A stretch of DNA of 64,000 nucleotides from Paludibacteraceae bacterium (GTDB lineage Bacteria > Bacteroidota > Bacteroidia > Bacteroidales > Paludibacteraceae): positions 62,001 through 126,000 of the forward strand of contig JAGCWA010000059.1 in assembly GCA_017962085.1 (NCBI GenBank), in the 5' to 3' direction. Made by a program: the position numbers and the translations under genes. How positions within the stretch are numbered: position 1 is the first letter of the stretch; every line of letters starts with the position of its first letter. The notes beneath the pieces are model-generated. The model ran no database searches. It was not told the origin of the DNA and saw only the letters and a program-made list of their open reading frames with translations. Shown in pieces: positions 23,234-51,754 of this stretch.

Positions 23234-26200
23234 ATGAGAAAAATAATTACTGCTTTCATGATGATGCTTTGCGCCGTCTGCATGGCGAGCGCGGCCAATT
23301 ACCTCACTTTTACGGCTGAGGAGGATAGTTCCACGTTCGGGATAATGAACAAAGGTAATTATCCTAGCTTGTTGTATTCGACGGATGGCGGGGAGAACTG
23401 GAGCTTCTTAGCTGGATCCACGCCCATTTTAGCCCATAAAGGCGACAAAGCCCTGCTGAAGGCAGATTGTCCCAATGGTTTTTCAGCCAATAGGGATTGT
23501 TATTCAACTTTCACGATGACAGGGAAAGTGGCCGCCAGCGGTAGTGTGATGAGCCTGGTTGACGGCACCGGCCTTTCTACGGAAATCCCTAATAATTACT
23601 GTTTCCAAAAGTTATTCAGTGGTTGCACCAGCCTGACGCAAGCCCCTGAATTGCCAGCGACGACATTGGCCAATTATTGTTATTATGAAATGTTCTCCGG
23701 CTGCACCAGTCTTACGCAAGCCCCTGAATTGCCTGCGACGACATTGTCCAATTATTGTTATTGTGAAATGTTCTCCGGTTGTACCAGCCTGACGCAGGCG
23801 CCTGAATTGCCAGCAACGAAATTGTCTCAATATTGTTATTGGGGAATGTTCTCAGGTTGCACCAGCCTGACGCAAGCCCCGGAATTGTCCGCCACGACAT
23901 TGGCAGGTTATTGCTACCAGTCAATGTTCTCCGGCTGCACCAGCCTGACACAAGCCCCGGAATTGTCCGCCACGACATTGACAGGTTATTGTTATCAGGA
24001 CATGTTCTCTGGTTGCACCAGCCTGACGAAAGCTCCTAAACTGCAGTCGACGACATTGGCTCCTTGTTGTTATTTAGGTATGTTCTCCGGTTGCACCAGC
24101 CTGACGCAGGCGCCTGAATTGCCAGCCACAACATTAGCTGAAAACTGTTATGTCAATATGTTCTCAGGTTGTGCCAGCCTGACGCAGGCGCCGAATTTGC
24201 CTGCCACGACATTGGCTAATCGTTGTTATATGTCTATGTTCTCAGGTTGCACGAACTTGTCCCGAATCCATGTCTCGTTTGATTCTTGGAATGGCGGTGC
24301 TGGCACTCTTGATTGGGTCAAAGACGTAGCCCCTGCCGGCACCTTCATTTGCCCTGATGCATTGCCTCTTGAATGTGGGAAGAATAGGATACCGTCAGGT
24401 TGGAAGGTGAAAAAAATTATTGATGGAGATTCCGTTGATGTGCCTGTCAATTACAACTATCTCACCTTCACGGCCGAGGAGGATGGTTCCACGTTCGGAA
24501 TCGTGAACAAGAAAAATAATGATCCTGATGTGCAATATTCGTTGGACGGTGGGAAGACATGGACCGCTTTGTCGGGAGGCGATACGGTCGTATTAGCCCA
24601 TAAGGGGGACAAAGCCTTGTTGAGAGGAGGTAATTCCCAATTTTTCTCAAAGGATCAGTATCAATATTCCTCCTTTACGATGACAGGGAAGGTGGCCGCT
24701 AGCGGTAGTGTGATGAGTCTAATCGACGGAATAGGACTTTCCACAAAAATCCCTTGTAATTACTGTTTCTATAGTTTGTTCTCGGGGTGTGCAGGTCTGA
24801 CGCAGGCTCCTGAAATGCCAGCGACGACATTGTCTAATTATTGTTATTGGAAAATGTTCTTCGGTTGCACCAGTCTGACGCAAGCCTCCGAATTGCCAGC
24901 CACGACATTGACTGGAAATTGTTATGAATCTATGTTCTCAGGCTGCACCAGCCTGACGCAAGCCCCTGCATTGCCGGCGACGACATTGACTGAAAAATGT
25001 TATTATGAAATGTTCTCAGGCTGCGCCAGTCTGACGCAAGCCCCCGAATTGCCTGCCACGACATTGATTGGAAATTGTTATGAATCTATGTTCTCAGGCT
25101 GCGCCAGCTTGAGACAAGCCCCTGCGTTGCCGGCGACGACATTGACTGAAAAATGTTATTATAGAATGTTCTCAGGTTGCGCGAGTCTGACGCAAGCCCC
25201 TGCATTACCAGCCACGACATTGGCCAATTATTGTTATTATGAGATGTTCTCCGGCTGCACCAGTTTGACGCAAGCCCCTGCATTGTCCGCCACGACGTTG
25301 GCCGAATGGTCTTGTTCGGGTATGTTCAAGAATTGCGCGGGTCTGACGCAAGCTCCCATATTGCTGGCCACGACATTGGCTTATTATTGTTATTATGAAA
25401 TGTTTTCAGGTTGCACCAGTTTGACGCAAGCCCCCGAACTGCCTGCTACGACATTGGCTGAGTATTGTTATAACAGGATGTTCTTAGGTTGCGCGAGTCT
25501 GACGCAAGCCCCCGAATTGCCAGCCACGACATTGATAAAATCCTGTTATGAGGGGATGTTCAAAGGTTGCACCAGCCTGACGAAAGCTCCTAAACTGCAG
25601 TCGACGACATTGGCTATTTTTTGCTATCGTGACATGTTCTCCGGCTGCACCAGCCTGACGCAGGCGCCTGCATTGCCAGCCACAAAATTAGCTGAAAGCT
25701 GTTATGCCAATATGTTCTCAGGTTGTGCCAAAGTGTCCGAAATCCATGTCTCCTTTGAGGATTGGGGGTATTATTGGGCGACCACTGGATGGCTCAAGGA
25801 CGTAGCCCCTACCGGCACCTTCATTTGCCCGAAAGCATTGCCGCTTGAGTATGGAGTGGACAGAATACCGGAAGGGTGGACGGTGAAATATATTGACGAT
25901 ACGGTTGCGGCTGAGACCAACTATCTCACCTTCACGGCAGAGGAGGATGGCTCTTCGTTCGGAATCGTGAACAACGAAGGAAATAATCCAGACGTGCAGT
26001 ATTCATTGGATGGCGGAAAAACATGGACCGCACTGGCTGCAGGGGATACCATCACGTTGGCCCACAAGGGGGACAAGGCTTTGTTGAGAGGGGATAATCC
26101 GGAAGGGTTCTCAAAGGATTATGAAATATACTCGTCTTTTACGATGACGGGCAAGATAGCCGCCAGTGGTAGTGTGATGAGCCTAATTGACGGCATGGGC

Positions 26201-29200
26201 AAAACCCTTGTCATTCCTTCTCTTTATTGCTTCTATAAGTTGTTCTCTGGTTGCACCAGTCTGACGCAAGCCCCTGAATTGCCTGCCACAACGTTGGCAG
26301 GTTGTTGTTATCAATATATGTTCAAAGGTTGCACCAGTTTGACGCAAGCGCCCGCATTGCCGGCTATGACATTGGCGGATCGTTGTTATCAATATATGTT
26401 CGAAGGATGCACCAGCCTGACGCAGGCACCAGCATTGCCGGCGACAACATTGTCCGAATGGTGCTATGGATACATGTTCAAAGGTTGCACCAGCCTGACG
26501 CAAGCCCCAGAATTGCCAGCAACGACGTTGGTAAGTGCTTGTTATCAATACATGTTCTCAGGTTGCACCAGTCTGACACAAGCTCCAAAATTGCCAGCTC
26601 CAGAATTGCTGGCCAACTCAAATGCGAAAAATAGTTGTTATCTCGGAATGTTCTCAGGGTGTACGAACTTGTCTGAAATCAGTGTAGCCTTCGTCGAGTG
26701 GAAAGACAGCTCTGATCAGGAGGACAACACTTATCGTTGGGTCGAAAACGTCGCCCCTACCGGCACCTTCATCTGCCCGAAAGCCTTGCCGCTTGAGTAT
26801 GGAGAGGATAGGATACCGGAAGGTTGGACGGTGAAATATATCGAGGACCTAGCCAATTACCTCACCTTCACGGCGGAGGAGGATAGTTCTTCGTTCGGAA
26901 TTGTGAACAACGGTGACAACAACCCAGACGTGCAGTATTCATTAGATGGCGGGGCGACATGGATCGCCTTGTCGGGAGGCAAGATGGTCACGTTAGCCCA
27001 TAAGGGAGACAAGGCTTTGCTGAAGGGAAATAATCCCCAAGGGTTCTCAAAGAATTATGATCAATATTCATCCTTTAAGATGACCGGGAAAGTGGCCGCA
27101 AGCGGTAGTGTGATGAGCCTGATCGATGGCGTAGGCCTTTCTACGGAGATTCCTAATAGTCATTGTTTCTTTGTTTTGTTCGAGTATTGCAGAGGATTGA
27201 CACAAGCGCCCGAATTGCCAGCCACGACATTGACCGAATTGTGTTATTGGTATATGTTTAGGTCTTGCACCAGCCTGAAGCAAGCCCCTGAACTGCCGGC
27301 CATGACATTGGCTAATAAATGTTATTGCCTTATGTTCTCAGGTTGCACGAGTCTGACGCAAGCTCCGGCACTTCCTGCCACGACCTTGGCTCCTTATTGT
27401 TATAGGAACATGTTCTCCGGCTGCAAGGGTCTGACGCAGGCACCGGAATTGCCAGCGACAACATTGGCAGAATCCTGTTATTATAATATGTTTGAAGATT
27501 GCACTAGTCTGACGCGAGCTCCGCATTTGCCAGCCACGACGTTAGCTGATTATTGTTATATGGGAATGTTCTCAGGTTGCACAAGCCTATCCCAAATCAG
27601 TGTCTCATTTGATGATTGGGGGGAAAATCGTGGCACTTATGGATGGGTCAGTAACGTTGCCCCTACCGGCACCTTCATCTGCCCTAACGCTTTGGCTCAG
27701 AGATATGGTGAGGATAGGATTCCTGTGGGTTGGACATTGGAATATAATAGGATCGATCCTAACTACCTCACCTTCACGGCCGAGGAGGATGGCTCTTCGT
27801 TCGGAATCGTGAACATAAATAATAATAATCCTGACGTGCAGTATTCATTGGATGGAGGGAAGACGTGGACTGCCTTGGCGGAAGGTGACACGGTCGTATT
27901 AGCCCATAAGGGTGACAAGGCATTGTTGAAGGGAAATAATCCCGAAGGTTTCTCATTCTCAAAGTTGGATAATTCATCTTTTAGGATGACAGGGAAAGTG
28001 GCCGCCAGCGGTAGTGTGATGAGTCTGATCGATGGAGTAGGTGTTTCTACGGAAGTTCCTGGGAATTTCTGTTTCTATAAATTGTTCCAAGGTTGCACCA
28101 GTCTGACGCAAGCCCCCGAATTGCCAGCGACGATATTGGCTGATAATTGTTATTGGGGGATGTTCTATCATTGCACCAGTCTGACGCAAGCCCCAGAATT
28201 GCCAGCTACAACGTTGGCTGAGGGCTGTTATTACGAGATGTTCTCAGGTTGCACCAGCCTGTCGGAAATCAAAGTGCCCTTTGATGATTGGAATCACGGT
28301 GATTACACTGCTGAATGGGTCATTGACGTAGCCCCTACCGGCACCTTCATCTGCCCGAAAGCATTGCCTCTTGAGTATGGATGGGAAAGTATACCGGAAG
28401 GTTGGACGGTGAAATATATCGAGGACATGGCCAATTACCTCACCTTCACGGCCGAGGAGGATGGTTCCACGTTCGGAATCGTGAACAACGCTGGCAACAA
28501 CCCAGACTTGCAGTATTCTTTGGACGGTGGGAAGACATGGACTGCCTTGGCTGGGGGCGACTCGGTCTTATTAGCCCATAAGGGAGACAAGGCCTTGCTG
28601 AAGGGAGACAATCCACAAGGGTTCTCAAAGAGCTTTTATCAACCAACCTTTAAGATGACAGGGAAAGTGGCCGCCAGCGGTAGTGTGATGAGTCTAATCT
28701 GTGGAACAGGACTTTCTACGGAAATTTTGGGGAATTCTTGTTTCGTGAATTTATTTAAGGATTGCACCAGCCTGACGCAAGCCCCTGAGTTGCCAGCCAC
28801 GATATTGACAGAATACTGTTATGATGGTATGTTCTCCGGTTGCACCAGCTTGACGCAAGCGCCTGAATTGCCGGCCACGACATTGGATTATGTTTGTTAT
28901 GCGAATATGTTCGAGGGTTGCACCGGTCTGACGCAAGCTCCAAAATTGCCAGCCACAACGTTATTGGAAGGTTGCTATGCGAATATGTTCTCAGGTTGTA
29001 CAAGCCTATCGGAAATCAATGTCTCATTTGAAGATTGGGATTATGGTATGGGGACTGGTCGTTGGGTCACCAACGTAGCTCCTACCGGCACCTTCATCTG
29101 TCCGAAAGCACTGGCTCTTGAGTATGGAGAGAATAGAATCCCTGAAGGTTGGACGGTGAAATATATCGATGATACGGTTGCGGCTGAGCCCAACTATTTG

Positions 29201-32200
29201 ACCTTCACGGCCGAGGAGGATGGCTCTACGTTCGGAATCGTGAACAACGGTGACAACAACCCAGACGTGCAGTATTCATTGGATGGTGGGGAAACTTGGA
29301 CCGCACTGGCTGCAGGCGATACCATCACGTTGGCCCATAAGGGTGACAAGGCTTTGTTGAGGGGAAATAATCCGGAAGGGTTCTCAAAGGATATAAAAAT
29401 ATGCTCGTCTTTTACGATGACGGGCAAGATAGCCGCCAGCGGTAGCGTGATGAGCCTGATCGACGGAACAGGACTTTCTACGGAGATTCCTAATGAGTAC
29501 TGTTTCTGTAGATTGTTCAGAGCTTGCACCAGTCTCACCCGAGCCCCTGAATTACCTGCTACGAAATTGGCTAGAGGTTGTTATGAATCTATGTTCTCAG
29601 GTTGCACCAGTCTGACGCAAGCCCCTGAATTGCCTGCTACAACGTTGGCAAGTTGTTGTTATGAATTCATGTTCTCAGGTTGCACAAGTCTTACGCAAGC
29701 CCCTGCATTGCCAGCCACGACGTTGGCGGAAAGTTGTTATGATGGAATGTTCTCAGGTTGCACCAGCCTGTCGCAAGCTCCTGAACTGCCAGCGACGACA
29801 TTGGCACCAACCTGTTATTGCGAAATGTTCTCCGGATGTACGAGTTTGACGCAAGCCCCTGAATTACCTGCTACGACATTGGTTGAAGGTTGTTACTACG
29901 GTATGTTCAAAGGTTGCACCAGTCTAACTGAAGCCCCTGAATTACCTGCCACGACATTGGCTGGTTATTGTTATTCCAGTATGTTCAAAGGTTGCACCAG
30001 TCTAACTGAAGCCCCTGAATTACCTGCCACGACATTGGCTGATTATTGTTATTCCAGTATGTTCTACGGTTGTACAAACCTGTCTCAAATCGATGTTGCC
30101 TTTGAGGAGTGGCCTATCAATGAAGGAACTTATAATTATGTCGCAAACGTCGCCCCAACCGGCACCTTCATCTGCCCGAAAACGTTGGCTCTCGAATATG
30201 GAATAAGCAGGATACCGGAGGGTTGGACGGTGAAATATATAGAGGACATGCCTAACTACCTCACCTTCACGGCAGAGGAGGATGGCTCTACGTTCAGAAT
30301 CGTGAACAACGGTGACAACAACCCAGACGTGCAGTATTCCTTGGATGGTGGAGAAACCTGGACCGCCTTAGCTGCAGGAGATACCATCACGTTGGCCCAT
30401 AAGGGTGACAAGGCTTTGTTGAGGGGAAATAATCCGGAAGGGTTCTCAAAGGATGGGAATCAATATTCAACATTTAAAATGACAGGGAAAGTGGCTGCCA
30501 GCGGTAGTGTGATGAGCTTAATCGATGGAACGGGTCTTTCTACGGAAATTCCTGGGAATTACTGTTTCTATAGTTTGTTCTCGGGGTGTACAGGTCTGAC
30601 GCAGACGCCTGAATTACCAGCTATGACATTGGCTAATTATTGTTATGGTTATATGTTCTCCGGTTGCACCAGTCTGACGCAAGCCCCCAAATTGCCGGCT
30701 ACGACATTGGCTGTGGGTTGTTATTCCTTCATGTTCTCCGGTTGCACCAGTCTGACGCAAGCCCCCGAACTGCCAGCTACTACGTTGGCTGAAGATTGTT
30801 ATTCTTTTATGTTCTCAGGCTGCACCGGCCTGACACAAGCCCCAAAATTGCCAGCTACAACGTTGGCTGATGCTTGTTATTACGAGATGTTCTCAGGTTG
30901 CACCAGTCTGACGCAAGCCCCCGAATTGCCAGCGACGAATTTAGCTGCTTCTTGTTATTGGAGAATGTTCTCAGGTTGCACCAGTCTGACGCAAGCCCCC
31001 GAACTGCCAGCTACTACGTTGGCTGAAGATTGTTATTCTTTTATGTTCTCAGGCTGCACCGGCCTGGCCCAGGCCCCTGAATTGCCTGCTACTACATTGG
31101 CTTATGGTTGTTATAATGGTATATTCGTAGGTTGCGAAAGCCTATCCCAGATTCGTGTCTCATTTGATGAATGGTCTTACGCCTTCACTGGTGACTGGGC
31201 TGTACGTGTAGCCCCTACCGGCACCTTCATCTGCCCGAAAGACCTGCCTCTCGAGTATGGAGATAGCAGAATACCGGAAGGTTGGACGGTGAAATATATC
31301 GAAGATACGGTTGCGGTGGAGGCCAACTACCTCACCTTCACGGCAGAGGAGGATGGCTCTACGTTCGGAATCGTGAACAAAGATAACAATCCCGACATCC
31401 AGTATTCATTGGATGGTGGGGAAACCTGGACCGCACTGGCTGCAGGCGATACCATCACGTTGGCCCATAAGGGAGACAAGGCTTTGTTGAAGGGAAATAA
31501 TCCCGGAGGTTTCTCAAAGTATTGGGAGCAATATTCAACCTTTAAGATGACCGGGAAAGTGGCCGCCAGTGGTAGTGTGATGAGTCTAATCGATGGAGTA
31601 GGACTTTCTACGGAGATTCCTAATGGTGAATGTTTTAACAGTTTATTCAAGGATTGCGCTAGTCTGACTCAAGCGCCGGAATTGCCAGCGACGAAATTGC
31701 AATGGAGTTGTTATGAATCTATGTTCGCTGGTTGCACCAGTCTGACTCAAGCTCCCGAATTGCCAGCGACGAATTTAGCTGCTTCTTGTTATTGGAGAAT
31801 GTTCTCAGGTTGCACGAGTCTGCTGCAAGCCCCAGAATTGCCGGCTACGAATTTGTTGGAGAAGAGTTCATATGCATTGATGTTCTCAGGTTGTACAAGC
31901 CTATCGGAAATCAATGTCTCATTTGAATATTGGGATTATGGTATGGGGACTGAAGAATGGGTCAAAGACGTCGCCCCTACCGGCACCTTCATCTGCCCGA
32001 AGACCTTGCCTCTTGAGTATGGAGAGAGCAGAATACCGGAAGGATGGACGGTGAAATATATAGAGGATGGTTCTGGCGTAAATACCACCTTGGCCGACAA
32101 TATCTCCGTATGGAGCGATGATTTAACTATCTTTGTGCGCGGTGCGGAGGGGGAGGTTTCCCTTTATGATATGTCGGGCAAGCGAGTGGCAGTCTCCAAC

Positions 32201-32293: not shown

Positions 32294-32340
32294 GGCGGCG
32301 CTGGCGGGGAAATATTAGTGTAGAATAAAATTTTTAAGTT

Positions 32341-37008: not shown

Positions 37009-37040
37009 GGGGCACCAACGCAATCCGGTTATAAATACTA

Positions 37041-37233
37041 GGGTGTCGCCCTTTCAGGGCTATGATTGCACCGCCGCATTATTCACAGGGGTTTACACCC
37101 CTGCCTGGGGGATGTCGCCCTTTCAGGGCTATCAATAATGTGCCTGTCGTTTCACACACACACAGGGGTTCACACCCCTGCCTGTGTTGTCACCGCCCCG
37201 TTGGGGCTCAGGTCGTGCGGGTCGGGTAAGGAT
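37041..37233. repeat. Intergenic repeat site 3: GC-rich composite element inside the gene 2/gene 3 junction
   Basis: Holds two copies of GTCGCCCTTTCAGGGCTAT, the inverted repeat CAGGGGT-ttac-ACCCCTG with GCCTGGGGGATGTCGCCC, a second CAGGGGT-tcac-ACCCCTG and CCCCGTTGGGGCTCAGG. The sequence on both sides resembles the ~46-bp junctions found between the other giant genes, so the element appears to have entered such a junction. Confidence 0.7.
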
Positions 37234-37273
37234 GCGCTGGAGAGAAGTTTAAGTAGAAAAAAATATATAGCTT

Positions 37274-40200: not shown

Positions 40201-42379
40201 GACCCCTCTCACCCCAGGGGAACCTGTCGTTTTGGATGAAATAGGCGAAACGGCCCTGCTGAGGGGAAATAACCCTGATGGTTTCTCGCAATCATGGGAC
40301 AACTATTCGAATTTCTCGATGACGGGAAGGATCTCCGCCAGAGGAAACGTGATGAGCCTGTTGGATGGAACGGGCGAATCCACCGTCATCCCTAATGATT
40401 ATTGTTTCTGTCGACTGTTCGAGAATTGCGAAGCTTTGGTGAAAGCCCCTGTATTGCCTGCCACCACCTTGACGAAGGGGTGCTACAAGGCCATGTTTAT
40501 GGAGTGCGTGGATTTAAAGATGGCGCCTGAATTGCCTGCCACGACATTGGCTGATAGTTGTTATGCGTATATGTTCTTCCATTGCGAAGACATTGGTCAA
40601 ACTCCAGTGTTGCCCGCCATGACGATGTCTGTCGGCTGTTATGCATATATGTTCTCATGTTGCTATTGTCTGCTTGATATCGTGGATTTACCTGCCACGA
40701 CGCTGGCGGAGAGCTGTTATGCGAATATGTTCAATGGTTGTGAGAGCTTGATGAATGCACCTGCGTTGCCCGCCACAACGTTAAAAAAGTGTTGTTATGC
40801 ATATATGTTCGCGGGTACTACATTACATCAGGCGCCAGAATTGCCAGCCACGACGTTAGCTGATAGTTGTTATGCATATATGTTTGTCTCATGTAACTTC
40901 CCTGAGGCTCCGAAATTGCCAGCCATGACGCTGGCGGAGGGATGTTATAGCCATATGTTCGTGGGATGCTGCTCCATAGATAAGACGCCAGAACTGCCTG
41001 CCACCACATTGGCTACTGGCTGTTATTCGTATATGTTCGATGATTGTTCGCAATTTCAGGAGATCCCGGAATTGCCAGCCACGACGTTGGCTAAGGATTG
41101 CTATTCTTACATGTTCCGTGATTGTTATTACTTACATAGTGTCGTATTGCCAGCCACGACGTTGGCGGAAGATTGCTATTCCTATATGTTCGCTGGTTGT
41201 GATGAATTGTCGGAAGTCAGGGTTTCTTTTGATCAGTGGCAAACTGCGGACGGGAAGGAGTCTAGTGTCATGTTCCTCGCAGGGGTGCGCGATACTGGTA
41301 CTTTCTACTGCCCGAAAGCCTTGGCGCTGGAATATGGAAGGAACAGGATACCTAGTGGTTGGACGGTGAAATATATCGAGGAAGAACCAAACTATCTGAC
41401 ATTCACGGCTGAGGAGGATAACGTCAGCGTCGTGGTCACGGAAGGTGAAGCGGGCGGCGGTGACATCCAGCCTGCCCCTTATCCGCAACTCTCGGATGAG
41501 TCCGCCGTTGCCTCTGTGGAGGGGGAGAAGAGACCGGTTATGAGAAGGAACCTCCCTTCTACGGGTGTTGACCTGAAGTATTCGACGGACGGCGGCGAGA
41601 CGTGGACGGAGATGAAACCTGGCACGCCTGTCACCTTGGCGAAGAAGGGGGATAAAATCCTGTTCAAGGGTAATAACCCGTCCGGATTCTCCACCGAGAC
41701 GCAACGCATCCAATTTGATATCGAGGGTACCGCCTCCGCGAGCGGAAGCGTGATGAGCCTGATAGACGAGATAGGAGGGACTACAACCATCCCGAACGAG
41801 TATTGCTTCGCCAGCCTCTTCGAAAACTGCGCAGGGCTCACGAAAATGCCTGATTTGAGCGCTACGACGCTGAAGGCATACTGCTACAAGGATATGTTCC
41901 GCGGGTGCACGAGCCTGACGTCAACAACCGAGTTGCCTGCCACCACGCTCGAGGAGGGTAGCTATGAGGGAATGTTCTATGACTGCGAGAACCTCTCCGA
42001 GGTGAGCGTGTCGTTCTCCGACTGGGCGGACGGAACGGAGGATTGGCTCCATGGGGTCGCTCCTGAAGGTAAGGTCATCAGTCCTGCCAGCCTTGCGCCA
42101 AACGTCGGGGATGATTATGTGCCGGATGGGTGGGCGCTCGTTCCGGATAGCATCCTCACAGGCGTGGCCAATGCCTTAGCCAGCGGCGTCACCGTATGGA
42201 GCGATGGTCTCACCATCTACGTCCGTGGTGCGGAGGGGGAGGTTTCCCTCTATGATCTGTCGGGCAAGCGGGTGGCGGTCTCCAGCTCCGCGGATGAGGT
42301 ACGTGCGTTGAGCGTGCCAGCCAAGGGTGTTTATGTGGTCCGCACCAGTGACGGGGAGAAATCCGTGCTAGTGCGCTAA
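37274..42379 (+). CDS. Giant secreted repeat protein 3 (5 modules, about 27 repeats; the divergent member)
   Basis: 1701 residues; signal peptide MKKIFTAFMMMLCAACVASA. Modules start near nt 37336, 38479, 39079, 40100 and 41391 with about 8, 1, 6, 10 and 2 repeats. It is the least uniform paralogue: repeats often read LEKAPELPATELAEYCYF, the fourth module opens VGQLSFTAEEEESTFELV instead of NYLTFTAEED, two repeats in it are shortened (around MFAGTTLHQAPEL and MFVSCNFPEAPKL), and the fifth module carries an extra ~35-residue stretch with no similarity to the other modules (from VTEGEAGGGDIQPAPYPQL on). The tail GEVSLYDLSGKRVAVSSS matches the others. Its variation suggests an older or less recombined copy. 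Confidence 0.85.
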   Translation: MKKIFTAFMMMLCAACVASAANYLTFTAAEDGSTFGIKNTYNDPDVQYSLDDGATWNLLADGASIPLAKKGDRALLKGNNPEGFSSDYLNCTQFVMSGSISASGSVMSLIDGKGESLTIPNKKCFYYLFSNCESLVQAPELPATHLADSCYANMFYFCTNLEKAPELPATELAEYCYFATFACCRKMVDVPQLPASVMVKGCYNSMFLGCYSLKQAPELPSTELANSCYANMFAYCIGLEKAPELPATVVVDSCYLCMFSRCDSLTQAPALPATELAYRCYYSMFDYCVSLEVAPELPATTLAEQCYYNMFSECFSLKKAPELPATELVKGCYTFMFHDCTSLSEVKAHFTSWEYVGYTYWLSAVAWPGTFYCPRELAKDTFPSDIPYRWVVKYNEGIDTTANYLTFTAEEDGSSFMIEHHYMERFPNIRYSLDGGESWAALMYGDTVFLPKKGDRAMLSGNNPAGLSQSYTSYSSFIMNGKIAASGSVMSLIDVDGLSTEIPNGHCFCRLFEGCTSLTQAPELPATTLTEKCYGEMFLGCTSLSEIHVSFSDWGSDSWTGSWVKDVAPTGTFICPYTLPLRYGESWIPKDWAVKYAGGEANYLTFTAEEDGSTFGIINNDGNNPNIQYSLDGGSTWSVLTADDLVTLRKKGDQAMLRGLNPNGFSRMETSVKISRFKMTGKIAASGSVMSLVDGVGNSTVIPVKGCFKNLFSMCSCLTQAPELPATTLTDYCYSGMFNQCTGLKKVPALPATTLKPDCYDGMFADCTSLIEAPEMSATTLDEYCYSYMFLGCKKLKNAPALPATKLAYACYASMFDGCVSLTEAPELPATELAESCYEEMFKGCKSLKKAPALPAPVLVNMCYNRMFWGCANLSEIEVSIEDWILEGSYGNTAYEWVYNVAPTGTFVCPKALPLEYGSCRIPDGWTVKYLDDTAVVVYVVGQLSFTAEEEESTFELVNNGNTPNVEYSKDGGKTWTPLTPGEPVVLDEIGETALLRGNNPDGFSQSWDNYSNFSMTGRISARGNVMSLLDGTGESTVIPNDYCFCRLFENCEALVKAPVLPATTLTKGCYKAMFMECVDLKMAPELPATTLADSCYAYMFFHCEDIGQTPVLPAMTMSVGCYAYMFSCCYCLLDIVDLPATTLAESCYANMFNGCESLMNAPALPATTLKKCCYAYMFAGTTLHQAPELPATTLADSCYAYMFVSCNFPEAPKLPAMTLAEGCYSHMFVGCCSIDKTPELPATTLATGCYSYMFDDCSQFQEIPELPATTLAKDCYSYMFRDCYYLHSVVLPATTLAEDCYSYMFAGCDELSEVRVSFDQWQTADGKESSVMFLAGVRDTGTFYCPKALALEYGRNRIPSGWTVKYIEEEPNYLTFTAEEDNVSVVVTEGEAGGGDIQPAPYPQLSDESAVASVEGEKRPVMRRNLPSTGVDLKYSTDGGETWTEMKPGTPVTLAKKGDKILFKGNNPSGFSTETQRIQFDIEGTASASGSVMSLIDEIGGTTTIPNEYCFASLFENCAGLTKMPDLSATTLKAYCYKDMFRGCTSLTSTTELPATTLEEGSYEGMFYDCENLSEVSVSFSDWADGTEDWLHGVAPEGKVISPASLAPNVGDDYVPDGWALVPDSILTGVANALASGVTVWSDGLTIYVRGAEGEVSLYDLSGKRVAVSSSADEVRALSVPAKGVYVVRTSDGEKSVLVR

Positions 42380-42425
42380 GGGTGCGCTGGCGAGAAGATT
42401 AAGTAGAAAAAAAATTTTTTAGCTT

Positions 42426-45400
42426 ATGAAGAGAATATTTACAGCTTTCATGATGATGCTCTGCGCCGCATGCGTGGCGAGCGCGGCCAACTACCTTACC
42501 TTCACGGCGGAGGAGGATAGTTCTTCGTTTGGAATTGTGAACGCAGGGAATAATCCTGACGTGCAGTATTCATTGGATGGTGGAGAAACCTGGACCGCAC
42601 TGGCTGCAGGCGATACCATCACGTTGGCCCATAAGGGTGACAAGGCTTTGTTGAGGGGAGATAATCCGGAAGGGTTCTCAAAGAGTAGGAGTCAGTATTC
42701 AACCTTTAAGATGACCGGGAAGGTGGCCGCCAGCGGTAGCGTGATGAGCCTGATCGATGGCGTAGGCCTTTCTACGGAGATTCCTAATGGGTACTGTTTC
42801 TGTAGATCGTTCAGAGCTTGCACCAGTCTCACCCGAGCCCCTGAATTGCCTGCCACGACATTGACCGCTTTTTGTTATGACGCGATGTTCTTAGGTTGCA
42901 CGAATCTGAAACAAGTTCCTACGCTGCCTGCCACGACGTTGGCTAATTTTTGTTATGACGGGATGTTCGCGGGATGCACGAGTCTGACGCAAACCCCTGA
43001 ACTGCCAGTTACGACATTGGCAAGTGGTTGTTATTATTCCATGTTCTCGGATTGCAAGAGTCTGACGCAAGCCCCCGCATTGCCTGCGACGACGTTAGCG
43101 GATAGTTGTTACATGTATATGTTCTCAGGTTGCACCGGTCTATCTGAGATCCATGTCTCATTTGACGATTGGAGGAATGCCGGTTATTCCACTGCTTATT
43201 GGGTCGAAAACGTAGCTCCAAGCGGCACCTTCATCTGTCCTGAGAATTTGCCTCTTGAATATGGGGCGAATAGGATACCGTTAGGTTGGAGGGTGAAAAA
43301 AGTTATTGATGGAGATACTGTAGATGTGCTGCCTGTCAACCGCGATTTACTCACCTTCACGGCAGAGGAGGATGGCTCTACGTTCGGAATTATGAACGAA
43401 AAAAATAATCCCAACGTGCAGTATTCCTTGAATGGTGGAGAAACATGGAACGCCTTAGCTGCAGGAGATACCATCACGTTGGCCCATAAGGGTGACAAGG
43501 CTTTGTTGAGGGGAAATAATCCGGAAGGGTTCTCAAGGAGTAGAACTCAATATTCAACTTTCGAGATGACCGGGAAAGTGTCCGCCAGCGGCAGTGTGAT
43601 GAGCCTGATTGACGGCGTAGGCAAAACTCTTGTTGTCCCTGCTAGTTTTTGTTTCCATAGTCTGTTCGAAGGTTGCACGAGTCTGACGCAAGCCCCTGAA
43701 TTGCCAGCTACGACGTTGACTGAAAATTGTTACAGAGCAATATTCTCTGGTTGCACCAGTTTGACGCAAGCCCCCGCATTGCCTGCCACGACATTGGCTT
43801 ATAGTTGTTATGAATCTATGTTCTCAGGTTGCACCAGTCTGACGCAAGCGCCCAAACTGCCAGCAACTACGTTGGCTGAAGCTTGTTATTTCGGGATGTT
43901 CTCTAGTTGTACCAGTCTGACGCAAGCACCCGAATTGCCTGCGACGACATTGGCTTATAGTTGTTATAAAAAAATGTTCAGTTCATGTGACCTCCTCCGT
44001 CAAGCCCCAGAATTGCCAGCAACGACGTTGGTAAGTGCTTGTTATCAATACATGTTCTCAGGTTGCACCAGTCTGACGCAAGCCCCCGAATTGCCAGCTC
44101 CTGAATTGATAGCCCACTCAAACGTGGAAATTAGTTGTTATTTCGGAATGTTCTCAGAGTGTACGAACTTGTCTGAAATCAGTGTGGCCTTCGTCAAGTG
44201 GAAAGATAGCACTGATCGTTGGGAAGACAACACTTATCGTTGGGTCGAAAACGTCGCCCCTACCGGCACCTTCATCTGCCCGAAAGCCTTGCCGCTTGAA
44301 TATGGAGAGAATAGAATACCGGAAGGGTGGACGGTGAAATATATAGAGGATATGGCCAACTACCTCACCTTCACGGCTGAGGAGGATGGCTCCACGTTCG
44401 GAATTGTGAACGGAAGGAATAGCCCTAACGTGCTGTATTCGTTAGACGGTGGGAAGACGTGGACCGCTTTGGCGGGAGGCGATACGGTCGTATTAGCCCA
44501 TAAGGGAGACAAGGCCTTGCTGAAAGGAAATAATCCACATGGGTTCTCACAGAATTATATGGAATATCAGTCGTCTTTCAAGATGACAGGGAAAATTGCC
44601 GCCAGTGGCAGCGTGATGAGCCTGATTGATGGAACAGGTCTTTCTTCAGAAATACGTGGGGTTGAATGTTTCGGTAGTTTATTCGAAAACTGCACTAGCC
44701 TGACGCAAGCCCCTGAATTGCCTGCCGTGACATTGGCTAATTATTGTTATGCATATATGTTCAGAGGTTGTACGAGTCTGACGCGAGCCCCCGAATTGCC
44801 GGCTACGACGTTGGCTGATGGTTGTTACTGGGAGATGTTCTCAGGTTGCACCAGTCTGACGCAAGCCCCTGAATTGCCTGCTACGACGTTGACGGAAGAT
44901 TGTTATGCATATATGTTCAGAGGTTGTACGAGTCTGACGCAAGCTCCTGCATTGATAGCGACGAAATTGGCTGGAGGTTGTTACTGTGAGATGTTCTCAG
45001 GTTGCACCAGTCTGACGCAAGCCCCTGCATTGCCTGCTACTACATTGGCCGATGCTTGTTATTCTTATATGTTCTCTAGTTGCACCAGCCTCACAGAAGC
45101 GCCTGCATTGCCTGCGACGACATTGGCTAATAATTGTTATTATAGCATGTTCTCGGGTTGCACCAGTCTGACGAAAGCTCCGAATTTGCCGGCTCCGGAA
45201 TTGCCAGCCCCCGTAAATAAGAATTTTTGTTACGGATCTATGTTCTTAAACTGTACTAACTTGTCGGAAATCAGTGTCGCCTTCAACGTGTGGGATGACA
45301 ACACTTCTTGGTGGGTCAAAGACGTTGCCCCTACCGGCACCTTCATCTGTCCGAAAGACTTGCCTCTTGAGTATGGGGTGAGCAGGATACCAGAGGGTTG

Positions 45401-46880
45401 GACGGTGAAATATATAGAGGACATGCCTAACTACCTCACCTTCACGGCGGAGGAGGATGGCTCTTCGTTCGGAATCGTGAACAACGGCGGCAACAACCCT
45501 GACGTGCGGTATTCATTGGATGGCGGAGAGACATGGACCGCCTTAGCGGGAGGCAAAATGGTCACGTTAGCCCATAAGGGTGACAAGGCCTTGCTGAAGG
45601 GAAATAATCCTCAAGGTTTCTCGAAGGATTATGATCATTATTCAGCCTTTAAGATGATAGGGAAAGTGGCCGCCAGCGGTAGTGTGATGAGCCTGATCGA
45701 TGAAACAGACCTTTCTACGGAGATCCCTAATGGGTACTGTTTCTGTAGATTGTTCAGAAATTGCACCAGCCTGACGCAAGCACCCGAATTGCCTGCCACG
45801 ACATTGGCTAGTGGTTGTTATTATGAAATGTTCTCCAATTGCACGAGTCTGACGCAAGCACCCGAATTGCCAACTACAACGTTGGCTAATAATTGTTATT
45901 ATGGCATGTTCTCAGATTGCACGAGTCTGACGCAAGCCCCGGAATTGCCAGCTACTACGTTGGCTGAGGCTTGTTATTATAGTATGTTCTCACGTTGCAC
46001 TAGTCTGGTGCAAGCTCCCGAATTGCCGACCACGACATTGGCTGATTATTGCTATTGTTTCATGTTCTCAGGATGCACAAGTCTTGCGCAGGCTCCAACA
46101 CTTTCTTCCATGGTGATGGTTGAAGGTTGTTATTCGTATATGTTCTCCGGTTGCACGAGTCTGACGCAAGCCCCCGAATTGCCTGCTACAACATTGCCAA
46201 CTGTCATAGAGTGTGGTTGTTATCAAGGAATGTTCTCACGTTGCACGAGTCTGACGCAGGCCCCGGAATTGCCAGCTACGACATTGGCTAATTTTTGCTA
46301 TCGTGAAATGTTCTCCGGTTGCGCCAACCTGACGCAAGCCCCTGAATTGCCGGCGACGGAATTGGTATTTGCTTGTTATGAATCTATGTTCTCCGGTTGC
46401 ACCAGTTTGACGCAAGCCCCTGCATTGCCTGCCACTACGTTGGCTGATTTTTGTTATGACGCGATGTTCAGAGGTTGCACCAGCCTATCCCAAATCCGTG
46501 TCTCATTTGATGATTGGAATGACGGCCTTCACACTGATAGATGGGTCGCAGACGTCGCCCCTACCGGCACCTTCATCTGCCCGAAAACATTGGCTCTTGA
46601 GTATGGAGAGGATAGGATACCTGAGGGTTGGACGGTGAAATATATTGGTGAGGAAGGTTCTGGCGTAAGCTCCGCCTTGGCCGATGACATCACCGTATGG
46701 ACCGACGGACTCACCGTCTACGTGTGTGGTGTGGAAGGGGAGGTTTCCCTCTATGATATGTCGGGCAGGATAGTCGCGGTCTCCAACTCTGCGGACGAGG
46801 AGCGTGCGCTGTGCGTTCCGGCCAAGGGTGCCTATGTGGTTCGTACGAATGGTGGATCATCGGTTGTGTTGGTGCGGTAA
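42426..46880 (+). CDS. Giant secreted repeat protein 4 (4 modules, about 26 repeats)
   Basis: 1484 residues, 46 bp after gene 3. Signal peptide MKRIFTAFMMMLCAACVASA. Modules start near nt 42489, 43350, 44358 and 45429 with about 4, 6, 7 and 9 repeats. Module 2 ends with the long-loop repeat LPAPELIAHSNVEISCYFG and cap ISVAFVKWKDSTD, closely matching the end of module 3 in protein 1. Module 4 contains a repeat lengthened by four residues (LPTVIECGCYQG). The C-terminal tail (GEVSLYDMSGRIVAV, KGAYVVRTNGGS) has small differences from the other copies, including a cysteine in VYVCGVEGE. Confidence 0.85.
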   Translation: MKRIFTAFMMMLCAACVASAANYLTFTAEEDSSSFGIVNAGNNPDVQYSLDGGETWTALAAGDTITLAHKGDKALLRGDNPEGFSKSRSQYSTFKMTGKVAASGSVMSLIDGVGLSTEIPNGYCFCRSFRACTSLTRAPELPATTLTAFCYDAMFLGCTNLKQVPTLPATTLANFCYDGMFAGCTSLTQTPELPVTTLASGCYYSMFSDCKSLTQAPALPATTLADSCYMYMFSGCTGLSEIHVSFDDWRNAGYSTAYWVENVAPSGTFICPENLPLEYGANRIPLGWRVKKVIDGDTVDVLPVNRDLLTFTAEEDGSTFGIMNEKNNPNVQYSLNGGETWNALAAGDTITLAHKGDKALLRGNNPEGFSRSRTQYSTFEMTGKVSASGSVMSLIDGVGKTLVVPASFCFHSLFEGCTSLTQAPELPATTLTENCYRAIFSGCTSLTQAPALPATTLAYSCYESMFSGCTSLTQAPKLPATTLAEACYFGMFSSCTSLTQAPELPATTLAYSCYKKMFSSCDLLRQAPELPATTLVSACYQYMFSGCTSLTQAPELPAPELIAHSNVEISCYFGMFSECTNLSEISVAFVKWKDSTDRWEDNTYRWVENVAPTGTFICPKALPLEYGENRIPEGWTVKYIEDMANYLTFTAEEDGSTFGIVNGRNSPNVLYSLDGGKTWTALAGGDTVVLAHKGDKALLKGNNPHGFSQNYMEYQSSFKMTGKIAASGSVMSLIDGTGLSSEIRGVECFGSLFENCTSLTQAPELPAVTLANYCYAYMFRGCTSLTRAPELPATTLADGCYWEMFSGCTSLTQAPELPATTLTEDCYAYMFRGCTSLTQAPALIATKLAGGCYCEMFSGCTSLTQAPALPATTLADACYSYMFSSCTSLTEAPALPATTLANNCYYSMFSGCTSLTKAPNLPAPELPAPVNKNFCYGSMFLNCTNLSEISVAFNVWDDNTSWWVKDVAPTGTFICPKDLPLEYGVSRIPEGWTVKYIEDMPNYLTFTAEEDGSSFGIVNNGGNNPDVRYSLDGGETWTALAGGKMVTLAHKGDKALLKGNNPQGFSKDYDHYSAFKMIGKVAASGSVMSLIDETDLSTEIPNGYCFCRLFRNCTSLTQAPELPATTLASGCYYEMFSNCTSLTQAPELPTTTLANNCYYGMFSDCTSLTQAPELPATTLAEACYYSMFSRCTSLVQAPELPTTTLADYCYCFMFSGCTSLAQAPTLSSMVMVEGCYSYMFSGCTSLTQAPELPATTLPTVIECGCYQGMFSRCTSLTQAPELPATTLANFCYREMFSGCANLTQAPELPATELVFACYESMFSGCTSLTQAPALPATTLADFCYDAMFRGCTSLSQIRVSFDDWNDGLHTDRWVADVAPTGTFICPKTLALEYGEDRIPEGWTVKYIGEEGSGVSSALADDITVWTDGLTVYVCGVEGEVSLYDMSGRIVAVSNSADEERALCVPAKGAYVVRTNGGSSVVLVR

Positions 46881-46924
46881 GGCTGCGCCGGCGGGAAATG
46901 TTAGGTGGAAAAAATATTTAGATT

Positions 46925-49900
46925 ATGAGGAAAATAATAATTGCTTTTGTGATGATGCTTTGCGCCGCCTGCGTGGCGAGTGCGGCTAACTACCTCACCT
47001 TCACGGCGGAGGAGGACAGTTCAACGTTTGGGATAGACTACTACTATCTCACTCCAGATGTGCAATACTCCTTGGACGGAGGAGCGTCGTGGGCTGAATT
47101 GACGGTCAGAGATACAATCCTATTGGCAAAAAAAGGAGATAAGGCACTCCTCAGAGGATATAATGAGAACGGACTGGGAAGTAATGGAAAGCAATTCGTT
47201 CACTTCGTCATGACGGGTGCTATCGCCGCCAGCGGCAGTGTGATGAGCCTGATAGATGGAATAGGTCTTTCTACAGAAATTCCTAATGAGGATTGTTTCC
47301 GTAGTTTGTTTTATTATTGCACGAGCCTGACGCAAGCTCCCGAATTGCCAGCCACGACCTTGGCTGATTATTGTTATCAGGATATGTTCTATCATTGCAC
47401 TAGCCTGACCAAAGCCCCTGAATTGCCAGCTGCAACATTGGCTGGGCGTTGTTATGTTGGAATGTTCGAAGGCTGCTCCAGTCTGACGCAGGCACCTGTT
47501 CTTCCAGCTGTGACGTTGGCTGAAGGTTGTTATGCATCGATGTTCTATCGTTGCACTAGTCTTACCCAAGCCCCTGAATTGCCAGCTGCAACATTGGCTG
47601 GGGGTTGTTATTCTGAAATGTTCTCCGGTTGCACGAGCCTTACGCAGGCTCCTGAACTGCCAGCTGCAACATTGGCTTATCAGTGTTATTATAAAATGTT
47701 CGAGGATTGCACCAGTCTGACCAAGGCTCCTGAACTGCCAGCCACGACATTGGATGTAAGTTGTTATTATGGTATGTTCAAGGGATGTAATAGCCTATCG
47801 GAAATTAATGTGTCATTTGATGATTGGAATTATAAATCCGCGACTTCCAAATGGGTTGAAAATGTAGCGTCTTCAGGCACATTCACCTGTCCGAAGACAT
47901 TGGCTCTCGAATATGGCGTGGACAGGATACCTGAAAGTTGGATTGTGAAATATAACGATGATACGGTTGTGGTTAAGCCTAACTACCTCACCTTCACGGC
48001 GGATGAGGATAGTTCCACGTTCAGAATCATAAATGAGCGTGGAAATAATCCCAATGTGCAGTATTCATTAGATGGCGGAGTGACATGGACCGCACTTGCT
48101 GCAGGAGATATCATCACATTGGCCCATAAGGGAGACAGGGCCTTGCTGAAGGGAAAAAATCTGGAAGGATTCTCAAATGGGAGCAGTAAATACTCGTCTT
48201 TTACGATGACGGGAAAGATAGCTGCCAGCGGTAGTGTGATGAGTCTGATCGATGGGGCAGGCGTTTCTACTACAATTCCTAATACTTATTGTTTCAATAA
48301 TTTATTTGCTGGCTGTACGAGTCTGACGCAGGCGCCTGAACTGCCTGCAACTAAACTTGATGGGTATTGTTATGCATCCATGTTCTCAGGTTGTACGGGT
48401 CTGACACAAGCCCCTGAATTGCCTGCGACCAAACTCGTCTGGTATTGTTATAATAGCATGTTCAAGGGCTGCACAAGCCTTACAAAAGCCCCAAAATTGT
48501 CAGTAGCAGAAATTGAAGGAAAATATTGCTATGGTGAGATGTTCTACGGTTGCACAAACATGTCTCAAATCGATGTCGCCTTCGAGGAGTGGCCTGTTAA
48601 TGATGGAACTTATAATTGGGTAAAAAACGTGGCTCCAACAGGACTCTTCATCTGCTCGAAGACGTTGCCACTTGAGTGTGGAGTGAATAGAATACCGGAA
48701 GGGTGGACGTTGAAATTTATCGATGATATTACTCCTGATAGTGCCAACTACCTCACCTTCACAGCTGAGGAGGATAGTTCTACGTTTGGAATCGTGGACA
48801 ACTATAAGAATTTTGACGTGTTGTATTCTTTAGATGGTGGAGAGACATGGAATGCTTTGACTGAAGAATACTCAGTTACGTTAGCCCATAAAGGAGACAA
48901 AGCTTTGATCCGAGGATACAATCCTAATGGGTTCAATTTTGTGAGTCGGTGCAGAAAATTCACAATGACAGGAAAAATCGCCGCTAATGGTAGTGTAATG
49001 AGTCTAATTGATGGAGTAGGCAACACAACTGTTATTCCTTCTGGATACTGTTTCTTCCGGCTCTTCTATAGGTGTTCCAGCCTTACACAGGCTCCTGAAT
49101 TGCCTGCTACTACGTTGACTAATATTTGTTACGAAGAAATGTTCGAGGGTTGTACTAATCTGACAAAAGCACCAGAATTACCAGCTACTACGTTGGCTGA
49201 AAGTTGCTATGCCAGCATGTTCTCAGGTTGTGCTAATCTGACGCAAGCACCCGAACTACCTGCTACTACGTTGGCTGATTATTGTTATGCATCTATGTTC
49301 TCTGAGTGTACAAACTTAAAAGAGGCATCAGAATTACCAGCTACTACGTTGGCTGAATATTGTTATGAGGGTATGTTCTCAGGTTGCACTAATTTAACGC
49401 AAGCTCCCGAATTACCTGCTACTACTTTGGCAGAATGGTGCTATTCTTATATGTTTAATGGTTGCACTAATCTGACGCAAGCACCAAAATTACCTGCAAT
49501 TACTTTGAATTATATGTGTTACTATGAAATGTTCTCAGGTTGCACTAATCTGACGCAAGCACCAGAATTGCCAGCTACTACGTTGGCTGAGCAATGCTAT
49601 TCGCTTATGTTCTATGGTTGCACCAGTCTATCACAGATTCATGTCTCTTTTGACAATTGGAGTGATGCCAATTATCCTACCAGTAACTGGGTTGAGGACG
49701 TTGCCCCTACTGGCACCTTCATCTGCCCGAAGGCTTTGGCTGAAGAGTATGGGGAGAGCAGAATACCGGAAGGTTGGACGGTGAAATATATCGATGATAC
49801 AGTTGCGGTTGAGGCCAACTACCTCACCTTCACGGCTGAGGAGGATGGTTCTTCGTTCGGAATCGTGACTAACGCTGGCAACAACCCAGACGTGCAGTAT

Positions 49901-50863
49901 TCTTTGGACGGTGGGGAGACGTGGACTGCCTTAACACAAGGTGACTCGGTCGTATTAGCCCATAAGGGAGACAAGGCTTTGTTGAAGGGTAATAATCCCG
50001 AAGGGTTCTCAAAGAGTAGAAGTCAATATTCAACTTTCGAGATGACCGGGAAAGTGTCCGCCAGCGGTAGTGTGATGAGCCTAATCGATGGAGTAGGTGT
50101 TTCCACGGAAATTCCTGAGGGTTATTGTTTCTGTAGTTTGTTTGAAAATTGTACAAGCCTGACCAAGGCTCCCGAATTGCCAGCAACGACATTGGCTCAT
50201 GGTTGTTATAGTAGTATGTTCTCAGGTTGTACCAGTCTGACGAAAGCGCCGGAATTGCCTGCTACGAATATAGATCGTAGTTGTTATGAGTCTATGTTCG
50301 CTGGCTGTACGAGTCTGACGAAGGCCCCTGCATTGCCAGCTATGTCATTGCCTGGTGGTTGTTATTATGGCATGTTCGCTGGCTGCACGAGTCTGATGCA
50401 AGCCCCTGCATTGCTTGCCACGTCGTTGGGTGGAAGTTGTTATGAAAGGATGTTCTCCGGTTGCACCAGTTTGTCGGAAATCAATGTTTCATTTACTAGT
50501 TGGGCGTATTTGGTGACTGAAGAATGGGTCGAAAACGTAGCCCCAACCGGCACCTTCATCTGCCCGAAAGATTTGCCTCTTGAGTATGGAGTGAGCTGGA
50601 TACCAGAGGGTTGGACGGTGAAATATATCGAAGGCGAAGGCTCTGGCGTAAGCTCCGCCTTGGCCGATGGCATCACCGTATGGACCGACGGACTCACCGT
50701 CCACGTCCGTGGGGCGGAGGGGGAGGTTTCCCTTTATGATATGTCGGGCAAGCGGGTGGCGGTCTCCAGCTCCGCGGATGGGGAGCGTGCGCTGAGCGTT
50801 CCGGCTAAGGGCGTTTATGTGGTTCGCGCGAATGGTGGATCATCGGTTGTGCTGGTGCGGTAA
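46925..50863 (+). CDS. Giant secreted repeat protein 5 (4 modules, about 20 repeats)
   Basis: 1312 residues, 44 bp after gene 4; the shortest member. Signal peptide MRKIIIAFVMMLCAACVASA. Modules start near nt 46986, 47980, 48746 and 49817 with about 6, 3, 7 and 4 repeats. The third module prefers CTNLTQAPELPATTLAE and uses more A/T-ending codons (act, gct, tta) than the rest, giving it a distinct base composition. The cap of module 2 (QIDVAFEEWPVNDGTYNW) matches that of module 7 in protein 1. The tail GEVSLYDMSGKRVAVSSS ... KGVYVVRANGGS is nearly the same as in protein 4. Confidence 0.85.
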   Translation: MRKIIIAFVMMLCAACVASAANYLTFTAEEDSSTFGIDYYYLTPDVQYSLDGGASWAELTVRDTILLAKKGDKALLRGYNENGLGSNGKQFVHFVMTGAIAASGSVMSLIDGIGLSTEIPNEDCFRSLFYYCTSLTQAPELPATTLADYCYQDMFYHCTSLTKAPELPAATLAGRCYVGMFEGCSSLTQAPVLPAVTLAEGCYASMFYRCTSLTQAPELPAATLAGGCYSEMFSGCTSLTQAPELPAATLAYQCYYKMFEDCTSLTKAPELPATTLDVSCYYGMFKGCNSLSEINVSFDDWNYKSATSKWVENVASSGTFTCPKTLALEYGVDRIPESWIVKYNDDTVVVKPNYLTFTADEDSSTFRIINERGNNPNVQYSLDGGVTWTALAAGDIITLAHKGDRALLKGKNLEGFSNGSSKYSSFTMTGKIAASGSVMSLIDGAGVSTTIPNTYCFNNLFAGCTSLTQAPELPATKLDGYCYASMFSGCTGLTQAPELPATKLVWYCYNSMFKGCTSLTKAPKLSVAEIEGKYCYGEMFYGCTNMSQIDVAFEEWPVNDGTYNWVKNVAPTGLFICSKTLPLECGVNRIPEGWTLKFIDDITPDSANYLTFTAEEDSSTFGIVDNYKNFDVLYSLDGGETWNALTEEYSVTLAHKGDKALIRGYNPNGFNFVSRCRKFTMTGKIAANGSVMSLIDGVGNTTVIPSGYCFFRLFYRCSSLTQAPELPATTLTNICYEEMFEGCTNLTKAPELPATTLAESCYASMFSGCANLTQAPELPATTLADYCYASMFSECTNLKEASELPATTLAEYCYEGMFSGCTNLTQAPELPATTLAEWCYSYMFNGCTNLTQAPKLPAITLNYMCYYEMFSGCTNLTQAPELPATTLAEQCYSLMFYGCTSLSQIHVSFDNWSDANYPTSNWVEDVAPTGTFICPKALAEEYGESRIPEGWTVKYIDDTVAVEANYLTFTAEEDGSSFGIVTNAGNNPDVQYSLDGGETWTALTQGDSVVLAHKGDKALLKGNNPEGFSKSRSQYSTFEMTGKVSASGSVMSLIDGVGVSTEIPEGYCFCSLFENCTSLTKAPELPATTLAHGCYSSMFSGCTSLTKAPELPATNIDRSCYESMFAGCTSLTKAPALPAMSLPGGCYYGMFAGCTSLMQAPALLATSLGGSCYERMFSGCTSLSEINVSFTSWAYLVTEEWVENVAPTGTFICPKDLPLEYGVSWIPEGWTVKYIEGEGSGVSSALADGITVWTDGLTVHVRGAEGEVSLYDMSGKRVAVSSSADGERALSVPAKGVYVVRANGGSSVVLVR

Positions 50864-51718: not shown

Positions 51719-51754
51719 CTTCTTCTCCGTTTAAGTGTCCGTATCTTTTCGAAA

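What the first reader, a model, noticed from the sequence alone, without database searches (positions are those of the whole stretch)
23234..50863. Tandem array of five giant modular secreted proteins made from one recurring unit
Five same-strand genes (3019, 1555, 1701, 1484, 1312 aa) lie head to tail over 27.6 kb. All share the signal peptide, the last ~70 residues and the module plan. Together they hold 26 modules and, by my count, about 154 copies of a 26-residue repeat. Modules differ mainly in repeat number (1 to 13), so the locus looks like a system for varying the length of solenoid blocks between fixed caps. Proteins with such repeats are known in Bacteroidota, but five giant paralogues with multiple capped solenoids at one locus may be undescribed as a unit. 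Adhesion, surface coat or antigenic variation are possible roles, none shown.
Basis: partly seen in the sequence, partly recalled or inferred. Interest (0 to 1): 0.85.

Follow-up and report, generated by a model that had tools for sequence, protein, structure and literature searches.

The report
Mosaic surface-protein array in rumen bacteria
A rumen-type bacterium carries a row of five very large surface-type proteins built from one repeated unit, and pieces of this row are almost identical to pieces in other, distantly related species, so the species appear to swap parts of their surface proteins.

Summary
In detail: five same-strand ORFs, 26 modules, 154 repeats, 1 to 13 per module. Each module is a ~100-aa N-cap, BspA/PARCEL-type leucine-rich repeats and a C-cap. 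The C-terminus resembles a T9SS type A sorting domain; SprA and GldM are in the genome. Named relatives are mostly Paludibacteraceae/Bacteroidales MAGs, many from ruminants. The genome has 67 N-caps.

New here: the array sits at a fixed site (EamA to ATP-grasp genes) holding 1 gene in one species, 3 in another, 5 here, at least 4 and about 7 in two with broken contigs. It is a mosaic: of 367 windows of 150 nt, 72 match another species' loci at 97% or more; none matches this genome's own array or other module loci. Segments shared with three distant species have dS 0 to 0.06, against 1.2 to 2.0 in EF-G. An intergenic palindrome accompanies modular genes (23 copies near, 3 elsewhere).

Best reading: T9SS-exported BspA-like surface binding proteins, diversified by inter-species recombination. 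Export is well supported; ligand and adhesion are inferred. No structure was obtained.

The parts
23234..32293 (+). gene 1, 3019 aa, 9 modules, repeats 8,12,5,5,2,3,7,7,3
32341..37008 (+). gene 2, 1555 aa, 4 modules, repeats 13,7,5,4
37274..42379 (+). gene 3, 1701 aa, 5 modules, repeats 8,1,6,10,2; more diverged repeats; N-cap 5 is 138 aa; mosaic of segments near-identical to G004, G006 and G013
42426..46880 (+). gene 4, 1484 aa, 4 modules, repeats 4,6,7,9
46925..50863 (+). gene 5, 1312 aa, 4 modules, repeats 6,3,7,4
30257..30562 (+). example N-cap (gene 1 module 8), 102 aa, with an Asp-box-like SLDGGETW motif; 26 N-caps in the array
50675..50860 (+). C-terminal ~62 aa of gene 5, T9SS type A sorting-domain-like; equivalents end genes 1-4 (gene 4 below cut-off)
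   Evidence: start set by eye
27499..28912 (+). run of segments ~99% identical to G001 second array gene (different gene position)
26383..26702 (+). segment 99.4% identical to G007 (EF-G 84% identical)
28090..28359 (+). segment 99.3% identical to G014 (EF-G 82% identical)
37544..38371 (+). two segments, 100% (374 nt) and 98.3% (351 nt) identical to G004 (EF-G 84% identical)
38492..38819 (+). segment 100% identical to G006
38813..41352 (+). three segments 98.9-99.4% identical to the G013 right-hand gene
22769..22786 (.). core of intergenic palindromic element, left of the array
37086..37180 (.). two cores of the element between genes 2 and 3
51017..51034 (.). core of the element, right of the array
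21339..22256 (+). left conserved flank: EamA transporter, after rpsD-rpoA-rplQ-pyrH-like genes
51188..54994 (-). right conserved flank: ORF 51188-51718 (no Pfam hit), ATP-grasp, sugar-transfer ATP-grasp, epimerase

Best explanation
The five genes encode Sec- and T9SS-exported, surface-displayed modular proteins. Each module is an N-cap, a BspA/PARCEL-type leucine-rich-repeat solenoid of 1-13 turns and a C-cap, so each protein is a string of several short solenoids with different exposed residues. They most likely work as adhesins or recognition proteins for rumen surfaces (feed particles, other microbes or host mucosa). The repertoire is diversified largely by homologous recombination that swaps module-sized DNA between species, at one chromosomal site that tolerates 1 to about 7 such genes. 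Shown: architecture, fixed locus with variable content, inter-species mosaicism. Strongly indicated: T9SS export. Inferred: solenoid fold, surface anchoring, ligand binding, and the reason variability is favoured.
For: LRR_5 (BspA-type) in 3 of the 3 array proteins scanned with Pfam, E 4e-43 to 4.7e-18. TIGR02167 (PARCEL) above cut-off in 4 of 5. T9SS domain TIGR04183 over cut-off in 4 of 5 genes in the six-frame scan but in 1 of 5 by hmmscan; 73 matches genome-wide, 70 over cut-off; of 6 PDB hits of the terminal-module profile, 4 are gingipain C-terminal domains, E 0.005-0.05. SprA 2391 bits and GldM 396 bits in the genome. Fixed site, variable content. Mosaic: 72 of 367 windows match other species at >=97%, 0 match own sequences; dS 0-0.056 against EF-G dS 1.24-1.96 for G004, G007, G014. 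Array contigs of G007 and G014 carry genes of their own clade. Five positions per repeat are hypervariable on a much more conserved frame; 133 distinct five-residue combinations among the 138 (of 154) repeats that fit the regular pattern. A similar repeat block lies behind an Mfa-like fimbrillin domain in a Segatella copri plasmid protein. Tannerella BspA binds fibronectin and fibrinogen (passage of PMC2843621).
Against: No ligand, expression or localisation data. Gene 4's sorting domain is below cut-off in both scans, and the top PDB hit of the terminal-module profile is a coat protein (E 0.0015). In unsaturated comparisons dN/dS at the hypervariable positions is 0.75 (0.24 in the rest of the repeat, 0.29 outside the regular repeats), so positive selection is not shown. 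Genomes are draft, mostly MAGs; contigs of G001, G005 and G013 break in or at the array. G004's array contig (22 kb) was not lineage-checked. Relatives of the repeat occur in phage protein families (phrog_9915, E 1.1e-36, unknown function), so the domain is not specific to surface proteins of bacteria.
Confidence: 0.6

Rival explanations
1. Structural surface coat: the proteins form an S-layer-like or fibrous sheath, and the variable positions are simply unconstrained exposed residues; variation has no recognition role.
For: Hypervariable positions evolve close to neutrally (dN/dS 0.75). The N-cap profile gives weak hits to two S-layer chains (7qlh, 8q1o; E 0.14 and 0.17), below many Asp-box hits to sialidases.
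Against: 67 N-caps in proteins of very different sizes on 10 contigs is an odd plan for a lattice protein; no structure to judge.
Confidence: 0.15
2. Defence of the cell's own surface: diversification to escape phages, protozoa or antibodies, with adhesion secondary. Not exclusive of the best explanation.
For: Recent module exchange between species and variable gene number at one site are what such escape could select.
Against: No within-genome near-identical copies (0 of 367 windows), unlike silent-cassette systems. Among 21 flanking ORFs given to Pfam the only recombination protein is RecA; invertible promoters and recombinases elsewhere were not searched for.
Confidence: 0.2
3. Near-neutral spread of PARCEL-like repeat DNA, with no function selected beyond export.
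For: PARCELs were described as horizontally spread repeats in genes of unknown function (abstract, section 5 and passages of PMC2996958).
Against: Signal-peptide-like start, caps and sorting-like end kept in frame in all five genes; dN/dS 0.24 in the repeat frame and 0.29 outside the regular repeats in recent comparisons.
Confidence: 0.05
4. Assembly or binning artefact: chimeric assembly of repeats creates the array and the apparent sharing.
For: Draft genomes; some relatives' contigs break at the array and carry N runs. The window's own source is not named, so a shared sample with one relative cannot be excluded.
Confidence: 0.07

Closest known systems
Tandem LRR protein genes of Flavobacterium psychrophilum (PMC8400371; passages read)
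   Same: T9SS-bearing Bacteroidota; consecutive LRR protein genes in a 21-kb region; gene number varies (16 to 23 ORFs) and was resolved with long reads
   Different: More and therefore (inferred) smaller genes rather than few giant multi-module ones; variation reported between isolates of one species; inter-species mosaicism not mentioned in the passages read; no sequence comparison was made here
PARCEL / TIGR02167 / DUF285 proteins (PMC2996958; abstract, section 5 and passages read)
   Same: Tandem ~25-residue repeats with variable exposed residues, often in surface proteins, horizontally spread; TIGR02167 above cut-off in 4 of 5
   Different: 26 not 25 residues; no DUF285 hit in the 3 proteins scanned; dyad symmetry of the repeat DNA not above controls; several capped blocks per protein; T9SS-like C-terminus
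BspA-like LRR proteins (Tannerella BspA, Trichomonas TvBspA; PMC2843621 passages read)
   Same: BspA-type repeat (Pfam LRR_5), surface location, large families
   Different: Caps, multiple solenoids per protein and mosaic array are not described in the passages read
Mfa-like fimbrillin with LRR block, Segatella copri plasmid NZ_CP137558.1
   Same: N-cap-like stretch and CYxxMF repeats (45.6% identity over 64% of a terminal module); C-cap-like end by eye
   Different: One block behind a fimbrillin domain; LRR_5 just below cut-off (25.5 against 27.7); no T9SS-like end by eye (not scanned with TIGR04183)

Membership tests
BspA-type LRR (PF13306) | Pfam gathering score reached | tested here: met
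   P0001-P0003: 146.8, 94.3 and 65.7 bits against 27.7; P0004 and P0005 were not scanned whole with Pfam
PARCEL (TIGR02167) | model cut-off 30 bits | tested here: met
   4 of 5 proteins (45.5, 56.1, 40.3, 51.1 bits); gene 3 no hit
PARCEL | DUF285 (PF03382) match | tested here: not met
   no hit at E<=1 in the 3 proteins scanned; accession number recalled
PARCEL | dyad symmetry of the coding repeat DNA | tested here: inconclusive
   best imperfect palindrome of the consensus unit scores 5; 689 of 2000 synonymous controls reach it; a simple test, not the MEME test of the paper; a first version was faulty
T9SS type A cargo | C-terminal sorting domain TIGR04183 over 23 bits | tested here: met
   4 of 5 genes in six-frame scan (30.1, 27.9, 27.0, 26.8); only 1 of 5 by hmmscan (24.5; others 21.5, 21.5, 15.3, 21.9); gene 4 below in both
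T9SS type A cargo | T9SS machinery in the genome | tested here: met
   SprA and GldM found; other components not searched
T9SS type A cargo | export and surface attachment shown by experiment | not testable with these tools
   needs culture or proteomics
F. psychrophilum-type tandem LRR array | consecutive related LRR genes, number variable at one site | tested here: met
   as a way of working only: 1, 3, 5 genes on single contigs in three species, more in two broken ones; variation here is between species, there between isolates
F. psychrophilum-type tandem LRR array | homology to the Flavobacterium genes | not tested
   those sequences were not fetched

The most novel reading that the evidence does not exclude
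Rumen Bacteroidales of several species draw on one shared, freely recombining pool of surface-recognition modules: species keep docking sites flanked by a family of intergenic palindromes, and whole genes or module-sized pieces are exchanged there, so surface specificity is inherited at community level rather than by species. The Fibrobacter single-module proteins would be an older branch of the same pool.
Probability: 0.3. Interest if true: 0.78.

Novelty: new variant of a known kind. Interest (0 to 1): 0.56.

Why it matters
Surface proteins decide what rumen bacteria stick to and what infects or eats them. If specificity modules move between species within the rumen, species-level gene lists miss the units on which selection acts, and the recurring array gives a defined site to watch that exchange with long reads.

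Tried and rejected
Recent duplication inside the genome: rejected as the main source. 0 of 367 windows had a >=97% match in the own array or the 11 other own stretches fetched, which cover the 41 other N-caps; the best internal pairs were five segments of 151-215 nt at 92.1-93.5%. A first blastn self-search gave nothing, probably because of its filter settings. Nearest neighbours in a DNA tree of 99 N-caps were in the same genome for 15 of 99, no more than label shuffles (mean 17.0), which argues against concerted evolution within genomes.

Positive selection: pairwise pN/pS at the variable positions was 0.96-0.98 against their own pS and 1.05-1.22 against the global pS, but the data are near saturation; the unsaturated comparison of 21 segments gave 0.75. 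Not claimed.

PARCEL-type DNA palindromes: not above controls. Phage or plasmid vehicle: IMG/VR scan with 94 pattern matches, none a relative by tblastn; 7 phage records with partial matches (37-52% of the query), identity 29-34%; a strong PHROG profile match of unknown function (phrog_9915, 1.1e-36); one plasmid record. So phages carry relatives of the repeat, but none was seen with this N-cap module and no vehicle for the exchange was found.

Breakpoints at module boundaries: 20 ends of 10 segments chosen by hand lie nearer N-cap edges than random positions (median 80 against 134 nt; 0.024 of resamples), suggestive only. Pfam and PDB hits to Reelin, Tli3, sortilin and sialidases centre on the short Asp-box motif and were not taken as family membership. 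My errors: the EF-G comparison with G004 used the wrong strand and was redone; notebook entry 5 says 38 loci where searches used 34 sequences.
Full report
What is there. Five ORFs of 3019, 1555, 1701, 1484 and 1312 aa stand head to tail at 23234-50863. Spacers between genes are 47, 265, 46 and 44 nt.

Families. LRR_5 (BspA type) is strong in the 3 proteins scanned; TIGR02167, the PARCEL model, passes in 4 of 5. The C-terminus fits TIGR04183 over cut-off in 4 of 5 genes in the six-frame scan, though in 1 of 5 by hmmscan. The genome has 73 such matches, 70 over cut-off, an SprA and a GldM. A profile of terminal modules hits gingipain C-terminal domains weakly, beside one coat protein and one uncharacterized protein.

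Where it comes from. The window is part of a 151,624-base contig of a 3.37-Mb, 59-contig genome; its name is not given. Related loci in GTDB genomes (73 distinct loci kept from the best 80 of 157 encoding stretches) are labelled Paludibacteraceae or Bacteroidales, plus one Prevotella and six Fibrobacter loci in five MAGs. Titles that name an animal give water buffalo, goat, sheep and yak, from rumen, reticulum or omasum; that RUG-type names mean rumen genomes is recalled. The six Fibrobacter ORFs each have one N-cap and, by eye, no signal peptide; three of the six are short (145-172 aa).

Genome- and genus-wide family. 67 N-caps in the own genome, 26 in the array. In the genus 13 of 16 genomes (own included) have some, from 2 to 81; G002, G008 and G011 have none.

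Fixed site, variable content. The same left flank (ribosomal genes, pyrH-like kinase, EamA) and right flank (51188 ORF, ATP-grasp genes, epimerase) enclose one modular gene in G003, three in G006 and five here, each on one contig. G013 has at least four on two contigs. G001 has ten ORF pieces on two contigs, about seven genes if pieces next to contig ends and N runs belong together (my inference). Both G005 contigs end at the array edge. In the one locus fetched for each of G004, G007, G009 and G014 the modular genes lie at other sites or the flanks are not in view.

Mosaic. Of 367 windows of 150 nt over the array, 72 have a >=97% ungapped match in the fetched loci of eight relatives, and none in the own array or the 11 other own stretches. 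By relative (a window may match more than one): G013 36, G001 22, G006 7, G004 6, G007 3, G014 2, G003 0, G009 0. Genes 2 and 5 show none. Gene 3 reads in order as near-identical to G004, G006, G013 and G006. For G001, G006 and G013 the core genes tested are themselves 93-96% identical, so those matches could in part be ordinary descent; their segments still have dS 0-0.021 against 0.07-0.79 in flank genes. G004, G007 and G014 are the strong case: EF-G identity 82-84% and dS 1.24-1.96, yet array segments of 270-374 nt are 98.3-100% identical with dS 0-0.056. The best 300-nt stretch of EF-G reaches 91.7% (G007) and 87.3% (G014). The segments were picked for high identity and only one core gene of these three species was compared base by base. 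Constraint alone is a poor explanation, because the own modules, under the same constraint, never reach 97% with one another in that scan. The G014 array contig carries a glyA 76% identical to the own genome's and 92-93% to those of G004, G007 and G015; the G007 contig an asd 81% identical to the own genome's and 97% to those of G004 and G015 (the names glyA and asd are recalled from the protein sequences). They are not strays of this species. G004's contig was not checked.

Variable residues. Positions 18, 19, 22, 23 and 26 carry 2.6-3.7 bits of entropy; the other 21 carry 0-2.1. Among the 138 repeats that fit the regular pattern there are 133 distinct five-residue combinations. The rate test shows weak constraint (dN/dS 0.75), not positive selection.

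Intergenic element. A core CAGGGGTTTACACCCCTG (up to two mismatches) with flanking hairpins occurs 23 times within 1 kb outside modular ORFs, never inside one, and 3 times elsewhere in 34 sequences; per non-coding base the density ratio is 18. One of the 3 lies at the contig end where G005's array is missing. The loci were chosen because they hold or adjoin modular genes, so its genome-wide distribution is open. Rfam at gathering thresholds finds no family there.

Function. Adhesion is inferred from relatives: Tannerella BspA (passages of PMC2843621) and a Segatella fimbrillin with a similar block.

Prior art. The listings of searches gave no description of this array; the library lacks most subscription papers. 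The nearest is the tandem LRR region of F. psychrophilum (passages of PMC8400371). Rumen T9SS cargo is known for multi-modular cellulases (PMC5831590, passages).

Noticed in passing
window 22769, 37086, 37164, 51017, 56988: Intergenic palindromic element strongly associated with modular genes in this genome and its relatives.
   Followed up: partly
L066, L068, L087, L090, L093, L094: Fibrobacter MAGs encode single-module proteins with the same N-cap (56-61% identity) and, by eye, no signal peptide.
   Followed up: partly
L132:8152-9882: Segatella copri plasmid protein joins a Mfa-like fimbrillin domain to an N-cap-like stretch and CYxxMF repeats.
   Followed up: partly
window 47279-48331 (P0005 residues 119-469): Strong match to a phage protein family of unknown function, phrog_9915 (E 1.1e-36).
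   Followed up: no
G000:C39:48245-48433, C34:96730-96963: Other T9SS-domain open frames of 4116 and 3236 aa in the genome, on contigs without N-cap hits.
   Followed up: no
window 19773-19884, 55235-55393: Short 7-nt-period repeats (ATTTACG / AAATAGT).
   Followed up: no
window 16647-16680: S4-Bacteroidia ribosomal leader, Rfam RF03139, upstream of the S4 gene.
   Followed up: no
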